This document shows positions 1,448-13,961 of a stretch of 64,000 bases of DNA, in pieces (position 1 is the first letter of the stretch; every line of letters starts with the position of its first letter). The DNA is from Martelella mediterranea (GTDB lineage: Bacteria; Pseudomonadota; Alphaproteobacteria; Rhizobiales; Rhizobiaceae). The translations under genes were made by a program, and so were the position numbers. The DNA is taken from NCBI GenBank assembly GCA_003001975.1, contig PVUG01000005.1:186001-250000 (forward strand). Reading direction: 5' to 3'. The notes under the pieces were generated by a model. It saw nothing but the letters and a program-made list of their open reading frames with translations. It searched no databases and was not told the DNA's origin.

Positions 1448-1620
1448 CACAGCACCTCATTGTGGGAATGATTTCGGGGTAAGCATTCACTGCTGATGTG
1501 CACGAAAATTGGGAAAAGAGGCACAGCGAAACTGCAGGGGAGCAGAGAAGAAACCAGTCCGTGCATCACAAAAACGGTAACTGCCGCACAAACCAAGACA
1601 AAAAGAAAGAGCGCCTTCAT
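1447..1620 (-). CDS. 57-residue putative membrane peptide in the phage early operon
   Basis: A short frame that begins MKALFLFVLVCAAVTVFVMH, one hydrophobic transmembrane-like segment, and ends HNEVL. Its ATG overlaps the stop of the Cro-like gene (ATGA, 1617-1620), and its TGA overlaps the ATG of the next gene (TGATG, 1445-1449). Perfect coupling at both ends is the main argument that it is translated. There is no recognisable family. It could be a small host-membrane-acting phage product, but that is only a guess from the hydrophobic N terminus. Confidence 0.55.
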   Translation of the reverse strand: MKALFLFVLVCAAVTVFVMHGLVSSLLPCSFAVPLFPIFVHISSECLPRNHSHNEVL

Positions 1621-1835
1621 GGTGTAGCCTCGGTAGCCACCCCCGGTCTTATCAACTCCGATAGTCCACGCTCATTCGCCAGCGCCTTCAAAAGACGCAA
1701 TGTCGGACCGCGCGCAGTTCCTCTCGCCTCCATACGCGAAACGCTGCATGCCGCGATCCCAAGCCAATCGGCCAATTGCGCTTGGGTCCAGCCAAGCTGC
1801 TGGCGAAGCGATTTGATGTCTATATTGCTATCCAT
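1617..1835 (-). CDS. Cro-like helix-turn-helix regulator
   Basis: A 72-residue HTH_3-type (Cro/C1) protein: LRQQLGWTQAQLADWLGI forms the first helix and turn, and the recognition helix lies around ACSVSRMEA. It is transcribed divergently from the CI-like repressor gene. Its promoter can be seen in the shared gap: a TTGACA box (minus strand, 1867-1872) and an AT-rich -10 near 1843-1849. Operator sites of the form TGC-N5-GCA flank the -35. ATG at 1835 is chosen because earlier starts would extend into the operator region. It most likely acts as the lytic-side repressor of a prophage switch. Confidence 0.75.
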   Translation of the reverse strand: MDSNIDIKSLRQQLGWTQAQLADWLGIAACSVSRMEARGTARGPTLRLLKALANERGLSELIRPGVATEATP

Positions 1836-1847
1836 AGAAGCAATTAA

Positions 1848-1905
1848 TGCGTTACGCACTAAAATATGTCAACGCGAAACGCATCATAAAAGCATGCAAA
1901 ATGCA
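1848..1905. promoter_or_regulatory. Divergent cro/cI operator region with three TGC-N5-GCA sites
   Basis: Three 11-bp palindromes: TGCGTTACGCA (1848-1858), CGCGAAACGCA (1873-1883, one half-site mismatch) and TGCAAAATGCA (1895-1905). Their centres are 25 and 22 bp apart, similar to the spacing of lambda OR1-OR3. A TTGACA -35 for the leftward gene (1867-1872, minus strand) sits between the first two, so binding would block the Cro-like promoter. The third site overlaps the repressor start and could mediate autoregulation. Sites are read directly from sequence; occupancy is inferred. Confidence 0.65.
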
Positions 1906-2524
1906 TCACATGACATTTGATGATCGCCCATCCCCTGCTATCCGCCTGCAACAGGCCCGCGAGCGTCGCGGCTTTAAGTCAGCAAAAGCCGCAGCAGAGT
2001 ACTTTGGCTGGTCTGTTGCAACATATATCCAGCACGAAAACGGTCAGCGCGGCCTCGTCAGGGCCGCGGCCCGATACGCCAAAGCATTCAGAATAAGCGA
2101 AGGTTGGCTGCTTACAGGAGATGGCGACGCTCCCGGACCTGCTATCCCTCTTGTTTCCTTGGTGAGCGCAGGAAAACTGGAGCAACCAAACGGCTACATT
2201 CCCTCCGACGAATTTGTCACGGTGCCGGCCGGCGGCTTACCGGCCGGCGACTGGATTGCTCTGCGTGTTGAGGGCGATTCCATGGATGATTACTCACCAC
2301 CAGGCTCCATCATCTTTGTTAATCGGCGCGAACGCGATCCGGTCGACGGCGGCTTCTATGTGGTATGCACGGATGATGGCGAGGCGACCTATAAGCGTTA
2401 TCGTGCAAACCCTGAGCGGCTAGAACCGCAATCCAGCAACAAGGCGCACGAGACGATCTTTCCACAAGGCTCCCTGACTATCATCGGCAGGGTGCGCAGA
2501 ACCATGCTCGATTTCCCTGCTTAA
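1901..2524 (+). CDS. CI/PrtR-type phage repressor with LexA-like (S24) peptidase domain
   Basis: A 207-residue protein. Residues 12-70 form an HTH domain (AAEYFGWSVATYIQHENG). The C-terminal S24 domain has an Ala90-Gly91 cleavage site (VSAGKL), the Ser127 nucleophile in EGDSMDD, and the Lys165 general base in EATYKRY, so RecA-stimulated self-cleavage is expected. ATG at 1910 is an alternative start. Genes of this type keep prophages or pyocin-like elements silent until DNA damage. The matching operators beside it and at the PrtN-like operon promoter (2919-2971) suggest one SOS-responsive switch. Confidence 0.85.
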   Translation: MHHMTFDDRPSPAIRLQQARERRGFKSAKAAAEYFGWSVATYIQHENGQRGLVRAAARYAKAFRISEGWLLTGDGDAPGPAIPLVSLVSAGKLEQPNGYIPSDEFVTVPAGGLPAGDWIALRVEGDSMDDYSPPGSIIFVNRRERDPVDGGFYVVCTDDGEATYKRYRANPERLEPQSSNKAHETIFPQGSLTIIGRVRRTMLDFPA

Positions 2525-2626
2525 GTCGGCGTATCACTCCCTTCTTAATTGCTAATCCAGTACACCCGGAGATTGCGCATTGGGTAGCGAAACACTAGCT
2601 TGCGCACGCAACTCAAGGGGATTCGC

Positions 2627-2860
2627 ATGTCTGCATTATTATTTGTTTTTGGTGCCATCTGGGTATGTGCGGGAATTTTGGTGGGCCTAACAGCTCCATC
2701 CGATATTCAGCTAACCATGGCAGCCGTACTCTTCACCGGTGCTTTGCTCTCATTCGGCCTTGCGGCCCTGCTCAGTCGTGCCAAAGCAAGTGCTGAAAGC
2801 CTTTCGCGCATAGAGCACTACCTTACCGGCAAGGAAGAAGAAGCACCTCAATCCGAGTGA
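2627..2860 (+). CDS. Small two-helix membrane protein, hypothetical
   Basis: 77 residues beginning MSALLFVFGAIWVC, with two predicted transmembrane segments (about residues 2-23 and 29-50) and a short charged C-terminal tail ending EEEAPQSE. AAGGGG lies eight bases before ATG 2627, which decides against the earlier in-frame start at 2600. It stands alone between the repressor gene and an intrinsic terminator. No family is recognised. Small membrane proteins in this position in prophages can be superinfection-exclusion factors, but nothing in the sequence proves this. Confidence 0.6.
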   Translation: MSALLFVFGAIWVCAGILVGLTAPSDIQLTMAAVLFTGALLSFGLAALLSRAKASAESLSRIEHYLTGKEEEAPQSE

Positions 2861-2881
2861 TCACCTAAGCTAATATCCGCT

Positions 2882-2911
2882 AAAGGCCTGCCATCGAGCA
2901 GGCCTTTTTTT
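2882..2911 (+). terminator. Intrinsic terminator after the small membrane protein gene
   Basis: The stem AAAGGCCTGC (2882-2891) pairs with GCAGGCCTTT (2898-2907) around a six-base loop and runs into a T tract ending at 2911. It separates the repressor-side transcript from the next promoter. Confidence 0.85.
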
Positions 2912-2918
2912 ATCGTAA

Positions 2919-2971
2919 AATAGTGCGTATTGCACTATTTTCTTGACATGAATAATGCAATACGCACTATT
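2919..2971 (+). promoter_or_regulatory. Operator-bracketed promoter of the PrtN-like operon
   Basis: A perfect 16-bp inverted repeat (arms 2919-2934 and 2956-2971) contains two copies of the repressor-type site: TGCGTATTGCA (2924-2934) and TGCAATACGCA (2956-2966). Between them lies a TTGACA -35 box (2943-2948). A poor -10 (ACTATT, 2966-2971) follows after 17 bp. Order and spacing (site, TTGACA, about 7 bp, site) closely match the Cro-like promoter at 1843-1883, so the same repressor probably binds here. Confidence 0.65.
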
Positions 2972-3030
2972 TGCGACCATGGCTAACGCCAGTTTTCTAC
3001 GTTGAAACAACCTAACTTTGGAGAACTGTT

Positions 3031-3177
3031 TTGATCACCATGGATCACCTTGTCGGCTTTTTCATCGGCGCATGTTCCGCCATCACGGCATATTCGATGA
3101 TTGGCGGCCTCGCCATGCACCGTTCTCTCAAGCGGACACAAGCTTTATCTTCCGGTCACCATCTAAGGAACAGGTGA
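3031..3177 (+). CDS. 48-residue putative membrane peptide, first gene of the PrtN-like operon
   Basis: The frame starts at TTG 3031, which lies seven bases after GGAG (3020-3023); ATG at 3040 is 16 bases from it and so less likely. The product has one hydrophobic stretch (HLVGFFIGACSAITAYSMIG) and a basic C terminus. Its TGA overlaps the ATG of the next gene (TGATG, 3175-3179). Position directly behind the repressor-controlled promoter and translational coupling support a real gene. No family is recognised. Confidence 0.5.
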   Translation: MITMDHLVGFFIGACSAITAYSMIGGLAMHRSLKRTQALSSGHHLRNR

Positions 3178-3725
3178 TGTCCACTCCCCTCTCCGCCAAG
3201 GATCACCTCGCTCGCATTCGCGAACTGGTTGCGAGCGCAGCGCCAGTTATTCAGATATCTTCTGACGTCGAGGGGCTCCATCTTGAAATACACGGCATGG
3301 AGCCATCAGAACCTGAGATTATCGGGACGATCCCGCTAGCGTGCCCCGCATCAAATCGCGAATTGCTGCTCAAGCATGTCGAGATACCGGCCGATCTGAT
3401 CCGCATGATTGACGCAGCGGCCAAGCTCGATAGAAGACGCCGGACCGAAATCGAACGCCTACAGATGGAGCTGGAGGCAAGAGGCGGCCGCCCGGCAAAG
3501 AACTATGCCGCCGAATGCGCCATAAAATGTAGCGAACCCGCCTTCAAGGCGTTCATGGAAGCCCGGCACGCCCTCGCACGGCCACTGACAGATGATCGCG
3601 TCGCCGCGCGCGTGCGCTCGGTCCTCGCCATTTCAAGTCGAACCGAGCTGAACACAAACAACAAAGCCGCCGCGCGCTGGCGCGGCATGGTGAAAAATTT
3701 CGAAAACTGGAGGAAACAGCAATGA
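3177..3725 (+). CDS. Hypothetical prophage protein of the PrtN-like operon
   Basis: 182 residues starting MSTPLSAKDHLARIR. The C-terminal half is basic and helical, with a conserved-looking core (KNYAAECAIKC, then an Arg-Pro-Leu-Thr-Asp-Asp segment). I know similar unnamed proteins from rhizobial prophages but no function. It overlaps the gene before (TGATG) and the gene after (ATGA at 3722-3725), so it belongs to the repressor-controlled three-gene operon. It may assist the PrtN-like activator or a phage replication step; this is inference from position only. Confidence 0.6.
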   Translation: MSTPLSAKDHLARIRELVASAAPVIQISSDVEGLHLEIHGMEPSEPEIIGTIPLACPASNRELLLKHVEIPADLIRMIDAAAKLDRRRRTEIERLQMELEARGGRPAKNYAAECAIKCSEPAFKAFMEARHALARPLTDDRVAARVRSVLAISSRTELNTNNKAAARWRGMVKNFENWRKQQ

Positions 3726-4012
3726 TTCCCGACAACACCTCCCCTCGCCCGAAAACCATTTTCTTTCTGATGATCCAGTACGAGGGCCGCGCGACAATCA
3801 CAGTCGAGCAAGTTTGCGAGGACTATTTTGCCCACCTCACCCCGGCGAAATTCCTTCGTAAGGTCTCACTCGGCGACATAGAAATACCCGTCACGCAGGC
3901 CGAGCCTTCTCAAAAATCTCAGAAGTATGTTCATATCAACGATCTGGCAGACTACATTGATCGCCAGCACGATATGGCGCTGAGGAACCATCATATGCTA
4001 CATCGAAAGTAA
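3722..4012 (+). CDS. PrtN-like pyocin/prophage activator
   Basis: 96 residues matching the layout of the pyocin activator PrtN family: KTIFFLMIQYEGRATITVEQ, then CEDYFAHLTPAKFLRKVSLG, then VHINDLADYIDRQ at the C terminus. In Pseudomonas, PrtN switches on pyocin or phage-tail genes and is itself repressed by PrtR, an S24-type repressor cleaved after DNA damage. Here a PrtR/CI-like repressor lies 1.2 kb upstream, and its operator type recurs at this operon's promoter. The target genes of this activator are not visible in the window. Confidence 0.8.
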   Translation: MIPDNTSPRPKTIFFLMIQYEGRATITVEQVCEDYFAHLTPAKFLRKVSLGDIEIPVTQAEPSQKSQKYVHINDLADYIDRQHDMALRNHHMLHRK

Positions 4013-4120: not shown

Positions 4121-5497
4121 GTGCCTGACCAATTTCTTCACGACAGAGACAACATCGGCTTGGAAGCGGAATGGGATACGCTTCAAGATTCGCTATCGGG
4201 ACCGCTGCGCCGCCGGTTAGCAGAAATCGTGCGCGCAGAGGCACCGCATCTGGCAAGGCAATTCTATTCGATTCTACAGAATGATGAGGATCTTTCGGCA
4301 ATGCTGCCCGACGAGCTCGTCAGAAACCGGTTGGTCCATACGTTGAAACAGTGGCTACTTGATTTGTTTCCTGAAGACCAAGCGCCTGACTTTCTCGAAA
4401 TGGTCGAAAAACAGCTCCGTGTCGGATCGGTTCACGCCCGCATCAATCTGCCTGTTCAGCACGTGAACAGGGCATGGCGCATGCTGGCCGAAGACCTGCA
4501 GCTTCGCATTCTAAAGGCCGCGCCGCCGCCCGAAGATCTGAAACTCATGCTGAGGGTCTCCGCCTCCACGCTCAATATTGCATTTGAAACAATGACGGCC
4601 GGATATGCGCGCGAGACGACACGCTCTGCGCGCAGCGAAGAGGCATATCGCTTGTTTTCGCTCGGACAGAACCTCACGCAGGAACGGGAAGCGCAGCGGG
4701 CCGCAATCGCCGAATGGACACAGACAATACTATTTTCGGTGGCTGCCGATTATGGAGAAGATCAGCGCACTCCGCTGTGGGAGTCGGAATTCGGCCTCTG
4801 GCTAATACATCGAGGGGGCATCATCTTCGAAGGCATGGCGGAGCTCGACCACGTCAAAGCGGCCATTTCAGAGATTGACAGCCGAATCCTTCCTGCGCTT
4901 CATCGCGGCCGGGATATTCACGGCGGGCTAGCCCTACTTCAGGCGAAGGTAAATGAGATCAAATCGCTGCTGGGTGAATGCTTCAATGCCGCCACTCGCA
5001 TCGAAGGTGGCCACGATCCGCAGACACGCATGCTGAACCGGCGCTTCATGGATACCGTGCTGACACGTGAAATCGGTTACTCCAGAAAGATGCGCAAAAA
5101 GCTGACGGTCATGATGATCGACCTCGATCACTTCAAACAGATCAATGACCGTTTCGGCCATGCCGGCGGCGACATAGCGCTACAGAAATGCGCCAAACTC
5201 GTGCTCGACATGATTCGCATCGGCGACTTTGCCTTCCGCTATGGCGGTGAAGAGTTCCTGATCGCGCTCGTCGAAACAGGCGAGGAAGAGGCCATGACCT
5301 TAGCTGAACGCCTCCGCACGAAAATTGCAAACACCAGCATCGAAGTATCCGAGGGTAAAAATATCAACATCACAGCATCAATCGGTATAGCCGAATTCAA
5401 AGGCCATCCTGACTATATGCAGCTCGTAAAATCCGCTGACGAGGCCCTGTATGGGGCCAAACAAAATGGCAGAAACTGCATCATCGCGTCAGCTTAA
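4121..5497 (+). CDS. Globin-coupled diguanylate cyclase (DosC/GcsDGC-like)
   Basis: 458 residues. Residues 15-165 form a protoglobin-type sensor with the probable haem-proximal His105 in VGSVHARINLPV, as in E. coli DosC (YddV). A middle helical domain follows (about 170-295). The C-terminal GGDEF domain has an intact GGEEF active loop (375-379) and an RxxD inhibitory site (366-369) five residues before it. It should make cyclic-di-GMP in response to bound oxygen or NO. GTG at 4121 is preceded by GGGAG at a good distance. It lies in the island rather than with the nitrate genes, and may be cargo. Confidence 0.88.
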   Translation: MPDQFLHDRDNIGLEAEWDTLQDSLSGPLRRRLAEIVRAEAPHLARQFYSILQNDEDLSAMLPDELVRNRLVHTLKQWLLDLFPEDQAPDFLEMVEKQLRVGSVHARINLPVQHVNRAWRMLAEDLQLRILKAAPPPEDLKLMLRVSASTLNIAFETMTAGYARETTRSARSEEAYRLFSLGQNLTQEREAQRAAIAEWTQTILFSVAADYGEDQRTPLWESEFGLWLIHRGGIIFEGMAELDHVKAAISEIDSRILPALHRGRDIHGGLALLQAKVNEIKSLLGECFNAATRIEGGHDPQTRMLNRRFMDTVLTREIGYSRKMRKKLTVMMIDLDHFKQINDRFGHAGGDIALQKCAKLVLDMIRIGDFAFRYGGEEFLIALVETGEEEAMTLAERLRTKIANTSIEVSEGKNINITASIGIAEFKGHPDYMQLVKSADEALYGAKQNGRNCIIASA

Positions 5498-5809: not shown

Positions 5810-6631
5810 ATGTTTATCGAGGGCGAACTGTATTCACGGACAACAGACATCCATGCGCACTTTGGAGGGCAAAAACAGGGCGGAATATCAACTCCGTCGA
5901 AGCACCCCTTCATATTTATATTCACCGGTAAGGCTGGACAGCAGCACGGCTATGCCGACGGCTGGAAGGAAGAAGGTGTCTTCCTCTATACCGGCGAAGG
6001 CCAGATTGGCGATATGGCATTTATCCGCGGCAACGCCGCCATTCGAGATCACGACAGCAACGGAAAAGAGCTTCTGCTTTTTGAAGCGCTTGGAAAATCA
6101 AAACCCGTCCGTTTCTTGGGCCGCTTCGCTTGCCAATCTTGGGACATCTTTCGCGGCCCAGACACAGAGGGCAAGATTCGCGACTGTATACAGTTCCACC
6201 TCGTAAAGCTGGGCACCGACAGTGGCCCTTTGCCCAACGAAACGAAATATGAGATTGAGCCGCCCGCCGATACCCCCCTCGCCATCTTGCGAATGCGCGC
6301 GCTCGAAGCATCCAAGCCTGCGCAATCGAAACGCTGGTCGAATGCTAGACAAGCATACAGGCAGAGGAGCAAGGCAGTTCGCGACTATGTCTTGGCCAGA
6401 GCTGATGGCAAATGCGAACTAACCGGTGAACCGGCGCCATTCAAAACAGCGTCAGGCGCACCCTATCTCGAAGTACATCATATTCGCCGCCTCTCCGATG
6501 ACGGACCAGATGACCCACGCTACGTAGCAGCAGTGGACCCAACTATTCATAGAAGGATTCACTTTGGCGAGGACGGCAAACAGCTGAATGATTGTCTTGC
6601 TTTCCGATTAGGAGAAATCGAAGCTCGATGA
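5810..6631 (+). CDS. ScoMcrA-like SRA-HNH restriction endonuclease
   Basis: 273 residues. The N-terminal half carries the SRA-type core (GGQKQGGISTPSKHPFIFIF, then YTGEGQIGDM and AAIRDH), as in ScoMcrA-type enzymes that read modified DNA. The C-terminal HNH domain keeps LEVHHIRRLSDDGPDDP and HRRIHFG, so the catalytic histidines remain. Three of the four usual structural zinc cysteines are replaced: CELTGEPAPF has one Cys, and VDPTIHRR replaces the normal CPxCHRR. A type IV restriction role against modified phage DNA is likely. The gene stands alone beside other defence-type genes. Confidence 0.8.
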   Translation: MFIEGELYSRTTDIHAHFGGQKQGGISTPSKHPFIFIFTGKAGQQHGYADGWKEEGVFLYTGEGQIGDMAFIRGNAAIRDHDSNGKELLLFEALGKSKPVRFLGRFACQSWDIFRGPDTEGKIRDCIQFHLVKLGTDSGPLPNETKYEIEPPADTPLAILRMRALEASKPAQSKRWSNARQAYRQRSKAVRDYVLARADGKCELTGEPAPFKTASGAPYLEVHHIRRLSDDGPDDPRYVAAVDPTIHRRIHFGEDGKQLNDCLAFRLGEIEAR

Positions 6632-7077: not shown

Positions 7078-7662
7078 GTGGGTCAATTGCTTTCAGATTT
7101 AGAAAAAATCGAATCTTATGTTCTCTCCAAACAGCGCTTCGACCAACTTGTCAGCTCACCAGGCGTCCATAACGTTATCCGTGCCATGATCGTTGCCGAA
7201 GATCGTCGCTATATATCCCATCACGGCATTGATGGTAGGGGAATGGGGAGAGCGCTATTCAGGTTTCTCTCGGAGCGAAAGGTCGAGGGTGCCAGCACAA
7301 TTGAGCAACAGTTCGTTCGTACGGCGCGTGGTCGATACGAGCTCACGATTTCCCGCAAATTCACAGAATGTCTTTTGGCCATTTTTGTTTCCGCGCGTCA
7401 CAGCAAGCTTATTATAGCGCTCTCTTATTTAGAGGCAGCCTACTTCGGATGGAATGCGAACGGAATCCATCAGGCCGCTCAGCGTTTGGGGGTTGACCTC
7501 GAGCACGTCACAAGGGCGGAAGCGGCCGCACTTGCAGCAATGCTAAAGGTTCCAATGCCCCGCTTTCCATCTACGCGCTATGTCGCGCGGCATGCTCAGC
7601 GTGTAGAGTATATTCTAACCAACTGGCAGGCGGTAGAAAAACGATATGGCTTCACTTTCTGA
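7078..7662 (+). CDS. Stand-alone GT51 peptidoglycan glycosyltransferase-like protein
   Basis: 194 residues that keep the main GT51 motifs of PBP1/MtgA enzymes: EDRRYISHHGID with the catalytic Glu, GASTIEQQFVRT (usual GGSTITQQ), RKFTECLLAI with the second Glu, and a SYLEAAYFG segment. Unlike MtgA it has no clear N-terminal membrane anchor. The start is non-ATG (GTG 7078 or TTG 7087; TAA lies just upstream at 7072). It overlaps the next gene by 17 bp. In this defence-rich island it may modify cell-wall precursors in an immune or toxin role; that is inference. Confidence 0.7.
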   Translation: MGQLLSDLEKIESYVLSKQRFDQLVSSPGVHNVIRAMIVAEDRRYISHHGIDGRGMGRALFRFLSERKVEGASTIEQQFVRTARGRYELTISRKFTECLLAIFVSARHSKLIIALSYLEAAYFGWNANGIHQAAQRLGVDLEHVTRAEAAALAAMLKVPMPRFPSTRYVARHAQRVEYILTNWQAVEKRYGFTF

Positions 7663-8332
7663 CTGGATTACACGGATGACTTCCAATTATCCCGATCCGA
7701 AATTATGGAAGGAACAAGGGGAGTTATCTAAGAAGGACGTCTTTCGTTTTGCCCGGCTCTGGCTGTGCGAAGGAATTCCCTATGCATTCCAGGAGAACGC
7801 TGCAGCATACGAGCTCGCGCGCGAGAACTTTGGAAAAGTTTTGGATGAGCACCCGAGAAATGTGAGTCTGACCGGCAGTGGCCGATTGGGATACTCTTTG
7901 GCCGGGCACAAATTCGGAACAGCCTACGACGCCAACACATCTGATGTGGACTTATTTCTGGTGTCTGAGACCTGGTTTGAGCGGATGAGAAAGGACGCGG
8001 AGCTTTTTATCAGCAGGTTTTCCGCAGGGCTCGCAGTTCCTAGAAACCATAGTGAGGAGAAATATTGGCCCGAAAATTGCGAACGCCTGAAGCAAAGCAT
8101 AGAAAAAGGATTCATCAACCAGCACTATATCCCGAATGTACCCAAATACCAAGCTGCGCAGTCCTGTTATAGAGCCTGTCGCGCTTTTCAAGTTACACTC
8201 GGCGAGAATATCAAGGCGACTGCACCGAAAAGAGTTAGCGTTAGGGTATACAAGGACTGGTCTAGTACAGAAAGTCAAATAGGCGGATCTCTAATATTTG
8301 CTCTGAAACAGACCGGTCACGAGCTAGGTTAA
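7646..8332 (+). CDS. Nucleotidyltransferase-like protein
   Basis: 228 residues. The central part has GSGRLGYSLAGHKFG followed by TSDVDLFLVSE, the Gly-Ser and Asp-x-Asp signature of the polymerase-beta-like nucleotidyltransferase fold. A helical N terminus (FRFARLWLCEGIPYAF) precedes it and a basic VRVYKDW segment follows. The spacing between GS and DVD is longer than in classic CD-NTases, so a cyclic-nucleotide signalling role cannot be assumed. It overlaps the GT51-like gene by 17 bp, so the two are translated together and probably work together. Confidence 0.65.
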   Translation: MASLSDWITRMTSNYPDPKLWKEQGELSKKDVFRFARLWLCEGIPYAFQENAAAYELARENFGKVLDEHPRNVSLTGSGRLGYSLAGHKFGTAYDANTSDVDLFLVSETWFERMRKDAELFISRFSAGLAVPRNHSEEKYWPENCERLKQSIEKGFINQHYIPNVPKYQAAQSCYRACRAFQVTLGENIKATAPKRVSVRVYKDWSSTESQIGGSLIFALKQTGHELG

Positions 8333-8366
8333 CACTAAAGCCAACACTTTTTTTGAGAGGCCGAAA

Positions 8367-9026
8367 ATTACTTGGAATGCAGAACAACGAACCTTTGCCC
8401 CCGCCTCGTGTCAGCGCGAGGAACCGTCGGATGAAATTCTGATCTTCGTCGTCGACGAAAGCTACGACCGCATTAATGAATATGTGGATTGGGACGACTA
8501 CGCTGATGAGTGGGCGGCAACAGAAGCGGCCAGCAAGATATTCCTTAGTCGCATCAGATCCGAGTTCGACGCCGACTTTGAGGAAGCGAACATTGGTCCC
8601 GGCGCAGACTTACCTGCGTTCGTCACGGTCATAGCCTCAAATGTCGTCCCGCTCATTCCATGGTTGATGGCGGTCTTCTTTTCCGGAAAGCCCATTGTCG
8701 ACAACATCGAAGCTTGGCGAACCATACTCAGCAAGATCAGACCGTTCTTCCGACGAACGATCGTTCTGAACCGGAATGGTGCGGCCGTCTTAGCGATGGA
8801 TGCAGTCTTCCAAGACATGGGCGGTATCCCTAAGAAGGTAGTCCTTCATGGATATAGGCCCGGCTCCAGGTACGACGACACCAAATTGGTTGCGCCGACT
8901 GAAATCAACGACCCGATACCCACGCTGAATCTGAGCATGGTAAAGCACGTTTTTCATATTGAGGCTGACGGGGTTTCATTCGTCGTTGCTGTCGACGGAT
9001 CCAAAGTGACCGCGAAGCGGGTCTAA
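8367..9026 (+). CDS. Hypothetical protein of the GT51/nucleotidyltransferase cassette, unusual start
   Basis: The coding frame is open from 8328, just after the previous stop, and reads as real protein (EPSDEILIFVVDESYDRINE) well before the first conventional start, GTG 8484. No ATG, GTG or TTG occurs in frame before that. GAGAGG (8355-8360) lies six bases upstream of ATT 8367, so an ATT start giving 219 residues is possible; a lost ATG is the alternative. One hydrophobic stretch (VVPLIPWLMAVFF) is seen. No family is recognised. It follows the nucleotidyltransferase gene by about 35 bp. Confidence 0.5.
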   Translation: MTWNAEQRTFAPASCQREEPSDEILIFVVDESYDRINEYVDWDDYADEWAATEAASKIFLSRIRSEFDADFEEANIGPGADLPAFVTVIASNVVPLIPWLMAVFFSGKPIVDNIEAWRTILSKIRPFFRRTIVLNRNGAAVLAMDAVFQDMGGIPKKVVLHGYRPGSRYDDTKLVAPTEINDPIPTLNLSMVKHVFHIEADGVSFVVAVDGSKVTAKRV

Positions 9027-9082
9027 TTTCGAACGCTGCGCGGTCCGGGTGGCTATGGTCGCGCTGCAAAGCAGGTTGAAGA

Positions 9083-9916
9083 TTGGTGTTCGAGAAACTC
9101 AAACAATGGCGCTTTGAGGCCAAGGCACGGAAGCGTATAAAACAATACGACCGGAAGTACAGAAAGGCGCTGCCCTTTTCGGAACGTCCGGAGCACTTGC
9201 CTGTCGAAAAAACCTTTGACGCGTTCGTTGCTGAGTTTGGCGGACAAAAGATTTCAGATTTAATCGAAAACAAGGCCCAAATGCCACTGAACGCTGACTA
9301 TCTATTTGAAAATCATAACGTTATTGCCGAGCTTAAGACGTTGGAAGGTATCTTCTCGGGCCCTGGCGCTATCAAGCAGTTGACGCAAGCATACATCGAT
9401 ACAGGCTGTACCGGATCGGACGTAATGGGGCTGCTTTTTCGAGATGAACCTGTGCCAAAAGCAGTGGCAAGACTAGTCCAAAAGCGGATTCGGCGTTCCA
9501 TAGAACAACGAATAAAGCAGGCCCGCAAGCAACTCCGAAAATCAAAAGCAGAGTTCGGCAATGACGATACCAAAATGCTGATTCTGATCGCTATGGATCA
9601 ACAGCCGTTGTTCGGGCACAGAACTATGCTCCTCAACTTAGCGAAGGTCATGGGCGACAACTACGCGGACGCACATACCGATGGTGTTGTATACCTCAAT
9701 CCGAACATGCCCACGAAGATCGGCCCCGACAGCATGGAGTTCTCTGGTTGGTATCCGTTCTATCGCGACGACGATGTAAACGACGAACTAAGCGATTTCG
9801 TTAACCTGCTCGGGAATAGGTGGCTGAAATACTACGGAAAACAAATAGGCGAAACGAACCCGGTCTTGCAACTCGCGTCCGTCGATGAAATGAGCGCAGC
9901 GCTTGAGCGCTTCTAG
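9083..9916 (+). CDS. Hypothetical protein, possible PD-(D/E)xK-like motif
   Basis: 277 residues, very basic in the first 35 (FEAKARKRIKQYDRKYRK) and again at about 135-155. The segment NADYLFENHNVIAELKTLE resembles a PD-(D/E)xK nuclease core (Asp, then Glu-x-Lys), but this is weak evidence. Starts are TTG 9083 or GTG 9086, with AGG nearby. It is the last rightward gene of the four-gene cassette, 56 bp after the previous stop. No family is recognised with confidence. Confidence 0.5.
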   Translation: MVFEKLKQWRFEAKARKRIKQYDRKYRKALPFSERPEHLPVEKTFDAFVAEFGGQKISDLIENKAQMPLNADYLFENHNVIAELKTLEGIFSGPGAIKQLTQAYIDTGCTGSDVMGLLFRDEPVPKAVARLVQKRIRRSIEQRIKQARKQLRKSKAEFGNDDTKMLILIAMDQQPLFGHRTMLLNLAKVMGDNYADAHTDGVVYLNPNMPTKIGPDSMEFSGWYPFYRDDDVNDELSDFVNLLGNRWLKYYGKQIGETNPVLQLASVDEMSAALERF

Positions 9917-10269: not shown

Positions 10270-11967
10270 TCACTTCTGCCCGATCAACTCTGCATACATA
10301 GCGTCTATGAATGGCCTCACTTTAGAATTTACACCTTGAAAGGCCTCGGACCGCAACAAGCGGTATGGCTCATCCAGTTTGATCACCTTGTCGAACGGGA
10401 AGTCCGTGTGGGTTTCAACTCCCAGGATCACCTGCATATCGGAGGGTAAAACTTCCGAGATGTATCGGATCATTATGGGCAGGTTGGTTGCGTCCTGACC
10501 TTGTTGCTGGGGAGAATCGATGACGACAGGCACCGAAAATGATCCGTACTCACTTAGGGAGGTCTTCCACAGTGCCGCGTAATAGGCCAGAACGGACCTT
10601 GGTCCACCGCTTCCGGAAATTCGTGGGCGGCTGTTCAACCTGAGCTTTTTCGTGTCTATGACCGGCATGTTCAGTGCGCCGAGAGCTGACGCATAGGCCT
10701 GACGGAAGGTGGACAAGATTGCCGCGGACCTTTGTCTGCTGGCTAAAGCATCCAGCCGAGTTTCCAAACTATGGATTTTAACGACAAGCTTACCGATCTT
10801 ATCTTCAAGGTCCGCGAGTTCCAACTCGAATGCAGCGAAGGCGGTTTCCGCGCCCATGCCCCTCACAACATCTTCAAATTTCAACTCTCCGCGCCGCGTC
10901 TCGAGGATTCCTGAAATTCGCGCATAGTTGGCGTCCAACTCGCTGAGGCAGGCCTTCGACTTCGCCATTATCTCGTTCGCTTTACGCGAATCGTCTTTGA
11001 GCTGGACTACAAGACTCCGAAGCACGCGGGCATCTTCGGAATATCTCAAAATATCCATGAATGTCTTGTCGTGCTCGGCATGGCAGACCGGACAAACTAA
11101 GACCTCATGCGGTTCCATCCTTAGGAACTCTGCGTCTCGGTCGTAGTGCGCAAGCGCTTGTTCCGCCATCTTGGTCTGAAGGGTCAAACTTTCGGCAGTC
11201 TCACGTTCACGGACCAGGGTATTCCTTAGCTTCTCTTGCTCTGCATTGAGCTCAGTGATCTCTTGCGTCAAACGTGCGACGTCTTGATCGAAAACTTCTG
11301 GCACTGTCTTAGGGCCATCGAGTCGGACCGTTTTGCCGAAGCGGTCCTTAATGTTTCGGATTATCTTTTCCTCCCCGCGAAATCCGACAAGTTCCTTTTG
11401 AAAGACAAGCTTTTCCGAGTTAAGCTCATAATACTCTGGCGGCTTTACGCCAGCGAAATAATCAAGAACTGACTCGACAGCCTTTTGGTATTGCTGGAGA
11501 TTTCGAAACGTCGACCAATCCGACAGCCAGCTCCCGTCCTGGTTGACGTAAAACGGCAAGAAAAATGTCCGAGCGTCGCCCGTTACCGACTTTGACTGTT
11601 TGTCCGTCAGGACCAGATTGAAGCCGAGAAGCTCGGCAAACCTTTGACCCCAATCAGTCGCGTTGGCGAACGCGAACTCAAGCTTCCCCCCCGCGCTGAA
11701 CAGCGCGCGATGATTTTGCTGCTGGACCACATGATAGATGGCCTCGTCGACGGAAAACTCTACTAGTGTCGTCGTATCCTTGCTCCACTGGTCCAGTTCT
11801 CCAGCCGGATAAGCTCCCAACGCGATGAAGAGCGATTTAATCAGGCTCGACTTTCCCGTGTGGTTCATCCCCACCAAGAGCGTCTTCTTCGGACTGAAGC
11901 TCTCTGCTCTGGCTCTTTGCTCGCTGTCCGAGAGCAGCGATATGCTTCTGAATCTGAAGTTTTTCAT
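10270..11967 (-). CDS. SMC/Rad50-like zinc-hook ATPase, LmuB-like (Lamassu-type defence)
   Basis: 565 residues. Walker A is GMNHTGKSS (33-41). A long coiled coil (about 200-290 and 310-410) is interrupted by a CPVC zinc hook near residue 292, and the Walker B region is VPVVIDSPQQQGQD near the C terminus. That is the layout of the SMC-like LmuB of Lamassu systems, which senses foreign DNA and activates the partner nuclease. The partner gene ends 33 bp upstream. A third subunit (LmuC) is absent, as in two-gene variants. GajA-like nuclease domains are not seen. Confidence 0.7.
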   Translation of the reverse strand: MKNFRFRSISLLSDSEQRARAESFSPKKTLLVGMNHTGKSSLIKSLFIALGAYPAGELDQWSKDTTTLVEFSVDEAIYHVVQQQNHRALFSAGGKLEFAFANATDWGQRFAELLGFNLVLTDKQSKSVTGDARTFFLPFYVNQDGSWLSDWSTFRNLQQYQKAVESVLDYFAGVKPPEYYELNSEKLVFQKELVGFRGEEKIIRNIKDRFGKTVRLDGPKTVPEVFDQDVARLTQEITELNAEQEKLRNTLVRERETAESLTLQTKMAEQALAHYDRDAEFLRMEPHEVLVCPVCHAEHDKTFMDILRYSEDARVLRSLVVQLKDDSRKANEIMAKSKACLSELDANYARISGILETRRGELKFEDVVRGMGAETAFAAFELELADLEDKIGKLVVKIHSLETRLDALASRQRSAAILSTFRQAYASALGALNMPVIDTKKLRLNSRPRISGSGGPRSVLAYYAALWKTSLSEYGSFSVPVVIDSPQQQGQDATNLPIMIRYISEVLPSDMQVILGVETHTDFPFDKVIKLDEPYRLLRSEAFQGVNSKVRPFIDAMYAELIGQK

Positions 11968-12000: not shown

Positions 12001-13152
12001 CTAGCTCGGGTCCACGCATTTCTCTATCGCTTTCAACAGGAAGTGGGCTTGTAACTCATGCAGTTTGACCCCGGAGTGTTCCGCTCGTAGATGAGCAAGA
12101 GCCATGTCGAACATAGACACGAGACTTGGACCCATCGGGTTAGCGGCGAGCCAAGTATCACAGCTCTCGGAGATTTCAATGTCCATCGGCAGCGGCGACC
12201 CGATTAGCTTGCGGGTATAGATGCCAGAGAAGGCAGTCCTTATCTGAGTCTTCTCCCAGAACGTCAGGCTGTCCCTCAACTCTACAAGCCATTCATTGAG
12301 ATGAAAGTCGACGTCTGTGGTCTGCTGAAGGTCCCCGAGCGCGTGATTCAGCTCGTAGAAACTGAAACCGTGTCTTGACTTCATCTCCTCGATCGTAGTC
12401 GCCTTAACTGTATTTGTGCCAAGCGGACCGAGTTTGGCCAAGAGGCTTTCAACGAACGACCGTGCCTGTCCTGCATGCTTCGGACTCGTTTTGTCCAGGA
12501 ACTTGTGAACGATGCCGATGGTGTAGGTCTGAGCATCGTCTACTGGTATGTCGACTCTTTCTAAAAGCACCTTCGATAGGTCTGATCTCGGGTGCCCCGG
12601 CTTCTGGACACTGTCAAGCGCAGACTGCAACAAATCAGTGAAATGCGGAGGGAGGGCAGATATCGCGACAGGGAGGGACGTAGCCGCGTTGCCGCCCGAA
12701 CCGAGTTTGAGATCGCACCCCGCGTTGGAGATAAACCGTCCCGACGCGCTCAGTGTCTTAAGGCCCGCGAGCGATCCGAAAAGCTTTCCGATCGGGCTAT
12801 CGGATATGCTGTCGAGGGGCTTCGTCTTTTTCTTCCGCGTTGCGTTCTTCGAGGGTTCATAGGGAACATGCAAATGTGTGAGCGACGCCCAGGTCCACTC
12901 GTTTCGGTCTTTCTTCTTAACCTGAAAAACCTCTATCGACGCAGGGCTTGTTGATGAATCCAGGACCGCGACGTCTTGGATGGCTTCGAACAGGAAAAGG
13001 AAATCAACCGCGTCGCTATCTTTCAAAGCGAACATTTTGACAATCGCCCAGTTCTTCTGGAACTCTATCCCCTTCTGGTTGTGACTACCTCCGGTTTCGA
13101 CGGCAAGTGGATCGGACAACGCGAGTACGATCTCTTGCAATGCTGCGTTCAA
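12001..13152 (-). CDS. Cap4/DUF4297-type dsDNA nuclease, LmuA-like (Lamassu-type effector)
   Basis: 383 residues. The N terminus has the Cap4 (DUF4297) nuclease pattern: GIEFQKNWAIVKMF, then Glu56 in FLFLFEAIQDV, and IEVFQVKKKD with the Gln77-x-Lys79 catalytic pair. The C-terminal two-thirds is unassigned and helical and probably contacts the ATPase. In Lamassu and DdmABC systems this effector degrades DNA once the SMC partner detects phage or plasmid. It is the first gene of a leftward two-gene operon. CBASS Cap4 also carries this domain, but no CD-NTase is adjacent. Confidence 0.72.
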   Translation of the reverse strand: MNAALQEIVLALSDPLAVETGGSHNQKGIEFQKNWAIVKMFALKDSDAVDFLFLFEAIQDVAVLDSSTSPASIEVFQVKKKDRNEWTWASLTHLHVPYEPSKNATRKKKTKPLDSISDSPIGKLFGSLAGLKTLSASGRFISNAGCDLKLGSGGNAATSLPVAISALPPHFTDLLQSALDSVQKPGHPRSDLSKVLLERVDIPVDDAQTYTIGIVHKFLDKTSPKHAGQARSFVESLLAKLGPLGTNTVKATTIEEMKSRHGFSFYELNHALGDLQQTTDVDFHLNEWLVELRDSLTFWEKTQIRTAFSGIYTRKLIGSPLPMDIEISESCDTWLAANPMGPSLVSMFDMALAHLRAEHSGVKLHELQAHFLLKAIEKCVDPS

Positions 13153-13657
13153 CTGTTCCGTCCCCCTGATTTAATGCAACCTAAAACTATAAGTGATCGG
13201 GCGTCAAGAAATAGGCGCAGAGCATTGCCGAATACTGTAAATCTGCCTGCCACTCGTCCGCAATGGGTAAAACTTGGACAGCAGCGCCAGATGTTTAGAT
13301 GTCCGCTTTCGCCGTTCGGTTCTTCGTATCGGACAGCCTCCTCCCGGCTCCTTTTCAGTTATCCCGATCTCATCTTTCCAGCGAACAGCCTGGATCTGCA
13401 AGAGGAACAAACAAAGAACAAAAGAGCTTTTTCGCTACACATCTCGCTACAAAAAAAATAACTATCTAAAAAATATGGCTAATTTCCACCGAATATCCAA
13501 TCGATCATGGGTGCAACGGCAAAGCGGGACGCCGCTGGAAATTCTTGTTTTTTAGTTTTTTCAGCCACTTAGAAGAACCTGATAACTCGTCTTATTCCAG
13601 CTCACTATGCTCCGAATCCACTGATCTTAATACTGGATTTGGTCCAGGGGACCAAAT
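13153..13657. other. 505-bp AT-rich gap at the island edge
   Basis: No gene is supported. It contains the upstream region of the Lamassu-like operon, A- and T-runs around 13430-13560, and a GGTCC-aggg-GACC palindrome near 13641 just before the integrase remnant. Base composition is clearly lower in GC than the flanking chromosome. No tRNA that might have served as an attachment site was found. Confidence 0.4.
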
Positions 13658-13920
13658 ATGGAGATCACCATGGGCTCGATCAGAACACGCAAACGAAAAG
13701 ATGGCAGCAACAGCTACCTTTCGCGTGCGAGTGATGCGCGAGGGCTCCGTCTATCATGAAACAAAGACCTTTGACAGACGCCCAGCTGCAGCCGCATGGA
13801 TAAAGAAACGCGAGAAAGAGCTGGCCAGACCTGGTGCGCTGGACGAGTTAAGTGCGCAAGCCCCACCACTGTCCAAAGCCATCGAGCGCTATACCGAAGA
13901 AGCGGTCAAAGAAATCGGAG
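13658..13920 (+). pseudogene. Truncated and frameshifted tyrosine integrase (N-terminal part)
   Basis: ATG 13670 begins GSIRTRKRKDGSNSYLS, the Arm-type N terminus of phage tyrosine recombinases. The frame then breaks: the continuation (RVRVMREGSVYHETKTFDRR, then WIKKREKELARPGA) is in another frame, so at least one indel lies near 13720-13735. Homology-like sequence stops after AVKEIG at about 13919. The core-binding and catalytic domains are missing. An intact copy would be about 350-400 residues. This is the remnant of the island's integrase and explains why the element is probably immobile. Confidence 0.75.
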
Positions 13921-13961
13921 CGGCACAAATACGCGACGGGTCCATTCGAGGGGATGTTCAT

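What the first reader, a model, noticed from the sequence alone, without database searches (positions are those of the whole stretch)
7078..9916. Unfamiliar four-gene cassette: GT51 transglycosylase, nucleotidyltransferase-like protein and two unknowns
A soluble-looking GT51 domain with both catalytic Glu motifs overlaps, by 17 bp, a protein with a GS...DVD nucleotidyltransferase motif, followed by two unknown genes. It sits in a decayed island between an SRA-HNH nuclease and a Lamassu-like pair. I know no described system with this composition. It could be a new defence or toxin system acting on cell-wall precursors or nucleotides.
Basis: partly seen in the sequence, partly recalled or inferred. 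Interest (0 to 1): 0.75.

Follow-up and report, generated by a model that had tools for sequence, protein, structure and literature searches.

The report
Mobile cell-wall polymerase plus nucleotidyltransferase pair
Two neighbouring genes, one for a cell-wall polymerase that appears to lack its membrane anchor and one for an undescribed nucleotidyltransferase-like protein, occur together in distant bacteria and in prophages, and they look like an unrecognised defence or toxin-antitoxin unit.

Summary
The unit is a small GT51 peptidoglycan polymerase (7078-7662) overlapping by 17 bp an NTase-like gene (7646-8332). I found the pair in nine further loci: five gammaproteobacteria, Cohnella (Bacillota), an Aliarcobacter plasmid (Campylobacterota) and two phage contigs. 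The genes overlap in 9 of 10 and lie 25 bp apart in one. The GT51s form one clade (100/99, nine tested) and keep both catalytic Glu; 9 of 10 clearly lack an N-terminal membrane helix, Cohnella is ambiguous. The window NTase has no Pfam or NCBIfam match; 9 of 10 relatives outside the GT51-linked group sit directly upstream of a DUF262 gene. The pair lies near known defence genes in the three loci scanned, beside the integrase or late end of two prophages and, in two loci, before an attC-like site. ORF3 and ORF4 occur in none of the other pair loci searched for them. Best reading, untested at the bench: the NTase restrains a cytosolic GT51 that, once released, ties up lipid II and stops wall synthesis. 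No library or paper I searched describes the pair.

The parts
7078..7662 (+). Small GT51 peptidoglycan glycosyltransferase gene (proposed effector); catalytic Glu codons at 7198-7200 (E41) and 7366-7368 (E97)
7646..8332 (+). NTase-like gene of an undescribed family (proposed regulator/antitoxin); GS codons 7874-7879, DVD codons 7943-7951
   Evidence: GS and SDxD invariant in 13 of 13 relatives; no Pfam match at E<=1, only a chance-level NCBIfam match (Mip 0.055); PHROG 32008 of unknown function 3.3e-8; model pLDDT 84
7646..7662 (+). 17-bp coding overlap of the two genes (8-17 bp in the first 8 loci)
8484..9026 (+). ORF3: neighbour, not part of the unit; open frame without ATG back to the NTase stop, perhaps 5'-truncated
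   Evidence: relative on a Paracoccus plasmid with no pair annotated nearby; absent from the other pair loci held and from 150 relatives
9083..9916 (+). ORF4: neighbour, not part of the unit; unknown
   Evidence: no relative on plasmids, in 150 relatives or in the other loci held
5810..6631 (+). Context only: SRA-HNH type IV restriction-like gene
   Evidence: PADLOC mREase_IV 1.9e-13
10270..11967 (-). Context only: Lamassu LmuB
   Evidence: PADLOC 2.4e-234
12001..13152 (-). Context only: Lamassu LmuA (Cap4-type nuclease domain)
   Evidence: PADLOC 3.6e-133, Pfam PF14130 9.1e-15

Best explanation
It is a mobile two-gene immune or toxin-antitoxin unit. SHOWN by computation: a GT51 peptidoglycan polymerase, in 9 of 10 loci without any N-terminal membrane segment, and an NTase-like protein occur and evolve together, usually as overlapping genes, near defence genes, beside the integrase or late end of prophages and in cassette-like settings. 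INFERRED: the NTase keeps the GT51 inactive in healthy cells, either by nucleotidylating it (as MntA does HepT) or by making an inhibitory nucleotide (as CloB does for CloA). Phage infection lifts the restraint. The released GT51, on the cytoplasmic face of the membrane, binds or polymerises lipid II before it is flipped out, which traps the undecaprenyl carrier and stops wall synthesis, so the infected cell stops growing or dies before phage release.
For: Ten loci with the pair: window; Aliarcobacter plasmid; five gammaproteobacteria; Cohnella; P2-like prophage end; temperate-phage contig with the pair next to the integrase. Overlap in 9 of 10. Nine GT51s form one clade, 100/99, against 22 ordinary GT51s; GT51 and NTase pairwise identities correlate r 0.96 over nine loci, 2 of 5000 permutations as high. 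dN/dS 0.085-0.238 (GT51) and 0.041-0.173 (NTase, 8 of 10 comparisons; 2 saturated). Catalytic residues kept, so catalysis seems to matter. Over the whole open frame before the catalytic motif, best 19-residue hydropathy is at most 1.10 in 9 of 10, against at least 1.83 in 22 of 22 ordinary ones. Known defence genes nearby in all three loci scanned: window, Aliarcobacter (bSEFIR, PDC-S21, Hp1-3, DrmC-like), Alkalimonas (NsnA-like, PDC-M68B, HEPN). The NTase family swaps partners: a DUF262 gene directly downstream in 9 of 10 relatives outside the GT51-linked group, once after a C5 methyltransferase, as a regulator might. Analogues: Clover, where inactivating the NTase makes the operon toxic (PMC12265719, section 2 and passages read), and HepT/MntA (PMC7641770, passages read).
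Confidence: 0.4

Rival explanations
1. CBASS-like logic with the opposite sign: the NTase senses infection and makes a nucleotide signal that switches the GT51 on.
For: Aliarcobacter NTase weakly matches a CBASS cyclase model (E 0.0054); partner swapping is also expected of a signal maker with varied effectors.
Against: The GT51 is a bare domain of about 190 aa with no extra ligand-binding domain; the window NTase has no cyclase match; hhalign with the plasmid's own CBASS NTase aligns 58 columns around the GS and DxD motifs with probability 14% (single-comparison E 0.0019).
Confidence: 0.15
2. The NTase is the toxin or effector (modifying tRNA or another target) and the GT51 is its sensor or antitoxin, for example reporting lipid II or wall damage.
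For: GS...DxD invariant 13 of 13; NTase has the lower dN in most gammaproteobacterial comparisons; AbiEii/MenA-type NTases are known toxins (recalled).
Against: The GT51 keeps its catalytic residues, more than a sensor needs; NTase active site lacks a conserved third acid on the last strand.
Confidence: 0.14
3. Envelope-modifying or antimicrobial-resistance cargo: the pair changes cell-wall synthesis or inactivates a wall-targeting compound (lysogenic conversion or an aadA-like cassette).
For: attC-like site directly after the pair in two loci; beside the late end or integrase of two prophages; AadA among the weak structural matches; a possible hydrophobic N-terminus in Cohnella.
Against: No N-terminal membrane segment in 9 of 10; defence-gene neighbours in the three loci scanned; DUF262 partners elsewhere.
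Confidence: 0.15
4. The reader's four-gene cassette acts as one system.
For: The four genes lie on one strand within 2.9 kb.
Against: ORF3 and ORF4 absent from the other pair loci held; ORF3 relative occurs without the pair annotated; gaps of 151 and 56 bp and no ATG in ORF3 before 8484.
Confidence: 0.02
5. An ordinary MtgA-type housekeeping transglycosylase next to an unrelated gene by chance.
For: GT51 fold and motifs.
Against: TIGR02070 68.8 bits against a 182.65 cut-off; separate clade; the same partner in 10 loci; each of the seven genomes examined has other GT51s.
Confidence: 0.01

Closest known systems
GT51 peptidoglycan glycosyltransferases (MtgA, class A PBPs)
   Different: No N-terminal membrane segment in 9 of 10, Cohnella unclear; YFGW and mostly QxVRT where the ordinary ones mostly have YFGxGAYG-like and [KR]N; below NCBI's MtgA cut-off; always with an NTase gene in the loci found
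Clover (CloA dNTPase + CloB NTase; PMC12265719, section 2 and passages read)
   Same: Two-gene unit of an enzyme and an NTase in defence islands; model of an NTase restraining a harmful enzyme
   Different: Partner is GT51, not an HD dNTPase; no conserved third acid seen of [D/E]h[D/E]..h[D/E]h; function untested
HEPN-MNT type VII toxin-antitoxin (HepT/MntA; PMC7641770, passages read)
   Same: Adjacent genes, a GS...DxD protein next to a putative toxin
   Different: No HEPN; 21 residues between GS and DxD instead of 10; about 220 aa; no PF01909 match for the window protein
CBASS CD-NTase systems
   Same: GS...DxD protein beside an effector-like enzyme
   Different: No cyclase match for the window NTase; no known Cap effector; bare catalytic domain as partner
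NTase-DUF262 (GmrSD_N) gene pairs seen here
   Same: Same NTase family (E 5e-4 to 4e-14 from GT51-linked queries; G1118 only with a mixed profile)
   Different: Partner and gene order differ (NTase first); NTases lie outside the GT51-linked clade

Membership tests
GT51 glycosyltransferase domain | PF00912 match over the gathering score and GT51 fold | tested here: met
GT51 glycosyltransferase domain | Two catalytic Glu | tested here: met
   E41 and E97 invariant in 8 of 8; both motifs present in L077 and L085
Monofunctional MtgA | NCBI equivalog TIGR02070 cut-off | tested here: not met
   68.8 bits against 182.65
Monofunctional MtgA / class A PBP | N-terminal membrane anchor | tested here: not met
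   window 0.75; 9 of 10 at most 1.10 over the whole frame, Cohnella 1.16-1.76 depending on the start; 22 of 22 ordinary GT51s at least 1.83. Hydropathy only, no dedicated predictor
HEPN-MNT (type VII TA) | HEPN toxin as partner | tested here: not met
   partner is GT51
HEPN-MNT (type VII TA) | MNT of PF01909 with GSX10DXD | tested here: not met
   no PF01909 match for the window NTase; Aliarcobacter 16.3 bits, under 21; 21 residues between GS and DxD in the window
HEPN-MNT (type VII TA) | NTase modifies the partner protein | not testable with these tools
   needs biochemistry
Clover | HD dNTPase partner | tested here: not met
   partner is GT51
Clover / CBASS / Hailong NTases | third acid of [D/E]h[D/E]..h[D/E]h | tested here: inconclusive
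   no conserved acid on the last strand (residues 197-202); E42, E56, D/E117 and E137 lie elsewhere
Pol-beta nucleotidyltransferase superfamily | fold | tested here: inconclusive
CBASS | CD-NTase plus known effector | tested here: inconclusive
   no PADLOC cyclase hit for the window, Aliarcobacter 0.0054, hhalign probability 14%
Integron gene cassette | attC site directly downstream | tested here: inconclusive
   attC-like motif spacing plus matching hairpin in 2 of 8 loci (Crenothrix, Alkalimonas); none in the window; stable hairpins without the motif also follow the pair in 3 other loci; integrase over cut-off in 4 of 6 genomes (0 of 14 controls), not on the pair's contig
Anti-phage defence system | protects against phage | not testable with these tools
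   needs phage challenge

The most novel reading that the evidence does not exclude
A new class of bacterial immunity or toxin-antitoxin unit whose weapon is a peptidoglycan polymerase placed on the wrong side of the membrane: a cytosolic GT51 that consumes lipid II before flipping, held in check by an NTase of an undescribed family that elsewhere is paired with GmrSD-type restriction domains.
Probability: 0.33. Interest if true: 0.92.

Novelty: categorically new. Interest (0 to 1): 0.77.

Why it matters
I know of no defence or toxin-antitoxin system that uses a cell-wall polymerase, and the searches listed below found none. If the pair works as proposed, it shows that lipid II can be attacked from inside the cell as an immune strategy, gives a genetic handle on cytosolic lipid II and its flipping, and adds an NTase family that goes with exchangeable partners (GT51, DUF262). 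The unit is about 1.25 kb, so it can be tested directly.

Tried and rejected

Searches without result: NTase in GenBank phages, none; single-protein scan of genome contigs, none; A1, A2, the GT51 pattern and a single GT51 in viral contigs, none. The pair is rare: apart from the query genomes no new pair in 200 relatives, 397 Pseudomonadota, 320 of the Pseudomonas-MAG class, 347 of the Cohnella phylum, 196 of the Alkalimonas order and 197 of the Cohnella order; the samples overlap in part. No DNA match in E. coli.

Pattern hits rejected: of 8 stretches, L018 is an ordinary 850-aa PBP and L019 gave no spanning ORF and no NTase. The pattern itself was too strict: it cannot match L077 (YFGWG). Of 423 plasmid records with a GT51 match (60 listed) I looked at three besides Aliarcobacter: H65 is a large PBP, H39 a 246-aa transglycosylase with no NTase annotated beside it, H8 has no annotation. 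Of the four GT51 loci one repeats L077; the other three score 50-96 bits with my GT51 profile, like ordinary ones, against 167 or more for pair members, and show no NTase, but two of them lie at the end of the stored DNA. L083 was spurious.

Rows dropped: of 30 GT51 places, 7 are pair members; of the other 23, 5 (L060, L065, L066, L068, L069) were left out of tree and hydropathy table because they scored weakly or not at all with my profile; 4 ordinary GT51s from other loci (L009, L010, L011, L018) were added, giving 22. L085 was found after the trees and is in none of them.

attC: in the Aeromonadaceae MAG the TAAC...GTTA spacing fits but the fold does not (z 0.9); the Pseudomonas and Cellvibrionales MAGs, window, Aliarcobacter and Cohnella lack the motif downstream. 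Against the reading: stable hairpins without the motif also follow the pair in Cohnella (z -3.9), Pseudomonas (-3.3) and Cellvibrionales (-2.8), so the z-score alone is not diagnostic.

Structure: no solved structure is clearly like the NTase, in PDB or the viral library; this does not show that the fold is new.

Literature: searches listed no paper that I could see describing a GT51-NTase pair; several listings were capped (for example 15 of 273, 10 of 75). I read passages of PMC12839542, PMC12409362, PMC3710099 and PMC7641770, and section 2 plus passages of PMC12265719; of the rest I saw listings only. Only open-licence papers are held; Nicastro 2023 was not held.
Full report
1. What is in the window. 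Gene A (7078-7662, 194 aa) and gene B (7646-8332, 228 aa) lie on the + strand and overlap by 17 bp. Gene A matches Pfam Transgly/GT51 (1.4e-33). Gene B matches no Pfam family at E 1 and only a chance-level NCBIfam model; PHROG 32008, of unknown function, gives 3.3e-8. On the left is an SRA-HNH type IV restriction-like gene and on the right a Lamassu pair on the other strand, both recognised by PADLOC. The stretch from 5 to 14 kb has lower G+C (0.50-0.55) than the window to the right of it (0.58-0.68). Further left are an S24 repressor and a PrtN-like gene, which suggests a decayed phage-derived island.

2. The pair is conserved. tblastn of gene B against 72,556 plasmids gave one record, Aliarcobacter cryaerophilus pM830MA (35% identity, 92% covered). 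There too it follows, with a 14-bp overlap, a small GT51 gene annotated as biosynthetic peptidoglycan transglycosylase. From the two GT51s I made a DNA pattern (STIxxQxxR[TSA], about 37-46 residues, YFGW) that matched 2 of the 11 loci then held, the window's own and Aliarcobacter, and is not expected by chance in the window. In the collection of 84,980 genomes it gave 8 stretches. Five gammaproteobacterial ones (Aeromonadaceae MAG, Crenothrix MAG, Cellvibrionales MAG, Alkalimonas collagenimarina, Pseudomonas MAG) hold the pair with a 14-bp overlap, and Cohnella fermenti (Bacillota) holds it with an 8-bp overlap. L018 is an ordinary PBP and L019 has no pair.

3. Two phage contigs. A profile of seven NTases found IMGVR_UViG_3300013000_000077: phage minor-tail, P2 GpU and GpD genes, then a 179-aa ORF, GT51, NTase (25-bp gap), a short ORF and a UDG-family gene. 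A later scan found IMGVR_UViG_3300036446_000028: a tyrosine integrase whose end overlaps the GT51 start by 4 bp, the pair, a serine recombinase and an S24 repressor. Its GT51 is 48% and its NTase 40% identical to the window's, the closest relatives I compared. Its NTase start is uncertain; all four candidate starts lie inside the GT51 gene. In total: ten loci, nine with overlap.

5. The two genes evolve together. Pairwise identities of GT51 and NTase over nine loci (36 pairs) correlate at 0.96; 2 of 5000 label permutations reach this. Five of the nine are close relatives, which helps the correlation, and the deep order of the two trees is not well resolved. Within those five, dN/dS is 0.085-0.238 for GT51 and 0.041-0.173 for NTase where dS is finite (2 of 10 NTase comparisons were saturated), so both genes are under purifying selection. 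DNA similarity among the five stops within about 40 bp of the unit's ends in 9 of 10 comparisons; Crenothrix and Alkalimonas also share about 110 bp downstream, the attC-like site.

7. Where it lives. The Aliarcobacter stretch holds PADLOC matches to bSEFIR (1.4e-83), PDC-S21 (4.9e-118), Hp1-Hp3, a DrmC-like PLD protein and a DUF4365 protein; the plasmid also carries annotated CBASS and RnlAB genes about 21-26 kb away. In Alkalimonas, within about 7 kb downstream, are an NsnA-like DUF262 protein (2.1e-69), a RiboL-PSP HEPN (Pfam) and a PDC-M68B match. I scanned only these two neighbourhoods and the window against PADLOC. The other seven were read as ORF lists, two of them with a Pfam scan (part was cut from view); several lie beside what look like housekeeping genes. 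There is no matched control for enrichment. In Crenothrix and Alkalimonas an attC-like hairpin directly follows the unit (bottom-strand z -5.4 and -3.4; -6.0 and -2.4 with other boundaries); other loci have hairpins of similar stability without the attC motif. Integron integrases over the cut-off occur in 4 of 6 genomes examined and 0 of 14 controls, on other contigs than the pair.

8. Genes 3 and 4. ORF3 has a relative on a Paracoccus plasmid (44%) with no pair annotated nearby, and a partial one on a Rhizobium plasmid. ORF4 had no relative on plasmids. Neither has one in 150 related genomes or in the other pair loci held; the two phage contigs came later and were not searched for them. They are best seen as neighbours.

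9. Mechanism. A GT51 with intact active-site residues but no anchor or export signal would meet lipid II only on the cytoplasmic face, where it is made (established biology). Polymerising or holding it there would block wall synthesis. An enzyme that harmful needs restraint, and the NTase is the constant partner. Restraint by an NTase is known in two forms: AMP transfer to the toxin (HepT/MntA, PMC7641770, passages read) and an inhibitory nucleotide (Clover, PMC12265719, section 2 and passages read, which also names Hailong and MISS/Panoptes as systems with inhibitory signals). The exchange of GT51 for DUF262 fits a regulator better than a co-substrate enzyme. Steps shown: conservation, fold, lack of an anchor in 9 of 10, context. 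Steps inferred: toxicity, restraint, phage trigger, lipid II as target.

10. Known or not. The pair fails defining features of HEPN-MNT (no HEPN, other motif spacing, no PF01909 match for the window), Clover (no dNTPase) and MtgA (cut-off, anchor). It may work like the first two. The window NTase has no useful match in Pfam, NCBIfam or PADLOC 2.0.0 and only an uncharacterised PHROG, and the ten literature searches named under Tried and rejected showed no description, with several listings capped. Newer defence catalogues and closed-access papers were not available, so prior description cannot be excluded.

Noticed in passing
L005, L006, L007, L008, L033, L071, L072, L080, L082: NTase-like genes directly upstream of a DUF262 gene in 9 of 10 relatives outside the GT51-linked group, in one case after a C5 methyltransferase; possibly a separate undescribed restriction or toxin-antitoxin unit.
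   Followed up: partly
L003 / L076 (Aliarcobacter cryaerophilus pM830MA): Plasmid with many defence genes: annotated CBASS and RnlAB, PADLOC matches to bSEFIR, PDC-S21, Hp1-Hp3 and DrmC-like.
   Followed up: partly
L030:10337-10450 and L027:1566-1680: attC-like hairpins directly after the pair; no integron integrase over the cut-off on those contigs (possible isolated cassettes).
   Followed up: partly
window 1617-4012 and about 13656-13950: Phage-type regulators (HTH, S24 repressor, PrtN-like) to the left and a short frame that looks like an integrase N-terminus (recalled resemblance, no Pfam hit) to the right, suggesting a decayed integrated element around the defence genes.
   Followed up: partly
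window 4121-5497: Protoglobin-GGDEF (DosC-like, globin-coupled) diguanylate cyclase close to the defence genes.
   Followed up: no
window 9083-9916: ORF4 has a NADY...ELKT stretch that recalls PD-(D/E)XK nucleases (resemblance from memory; no Pfam or PADLOC match).
   Followed up: no
L031:10316-10939 (Cohnella): Its GT51 has a 13-residue hydrophobic run near the N-terminus, so the family may hold both cytosolic and membrane-associated forms.
   Followed up: partly
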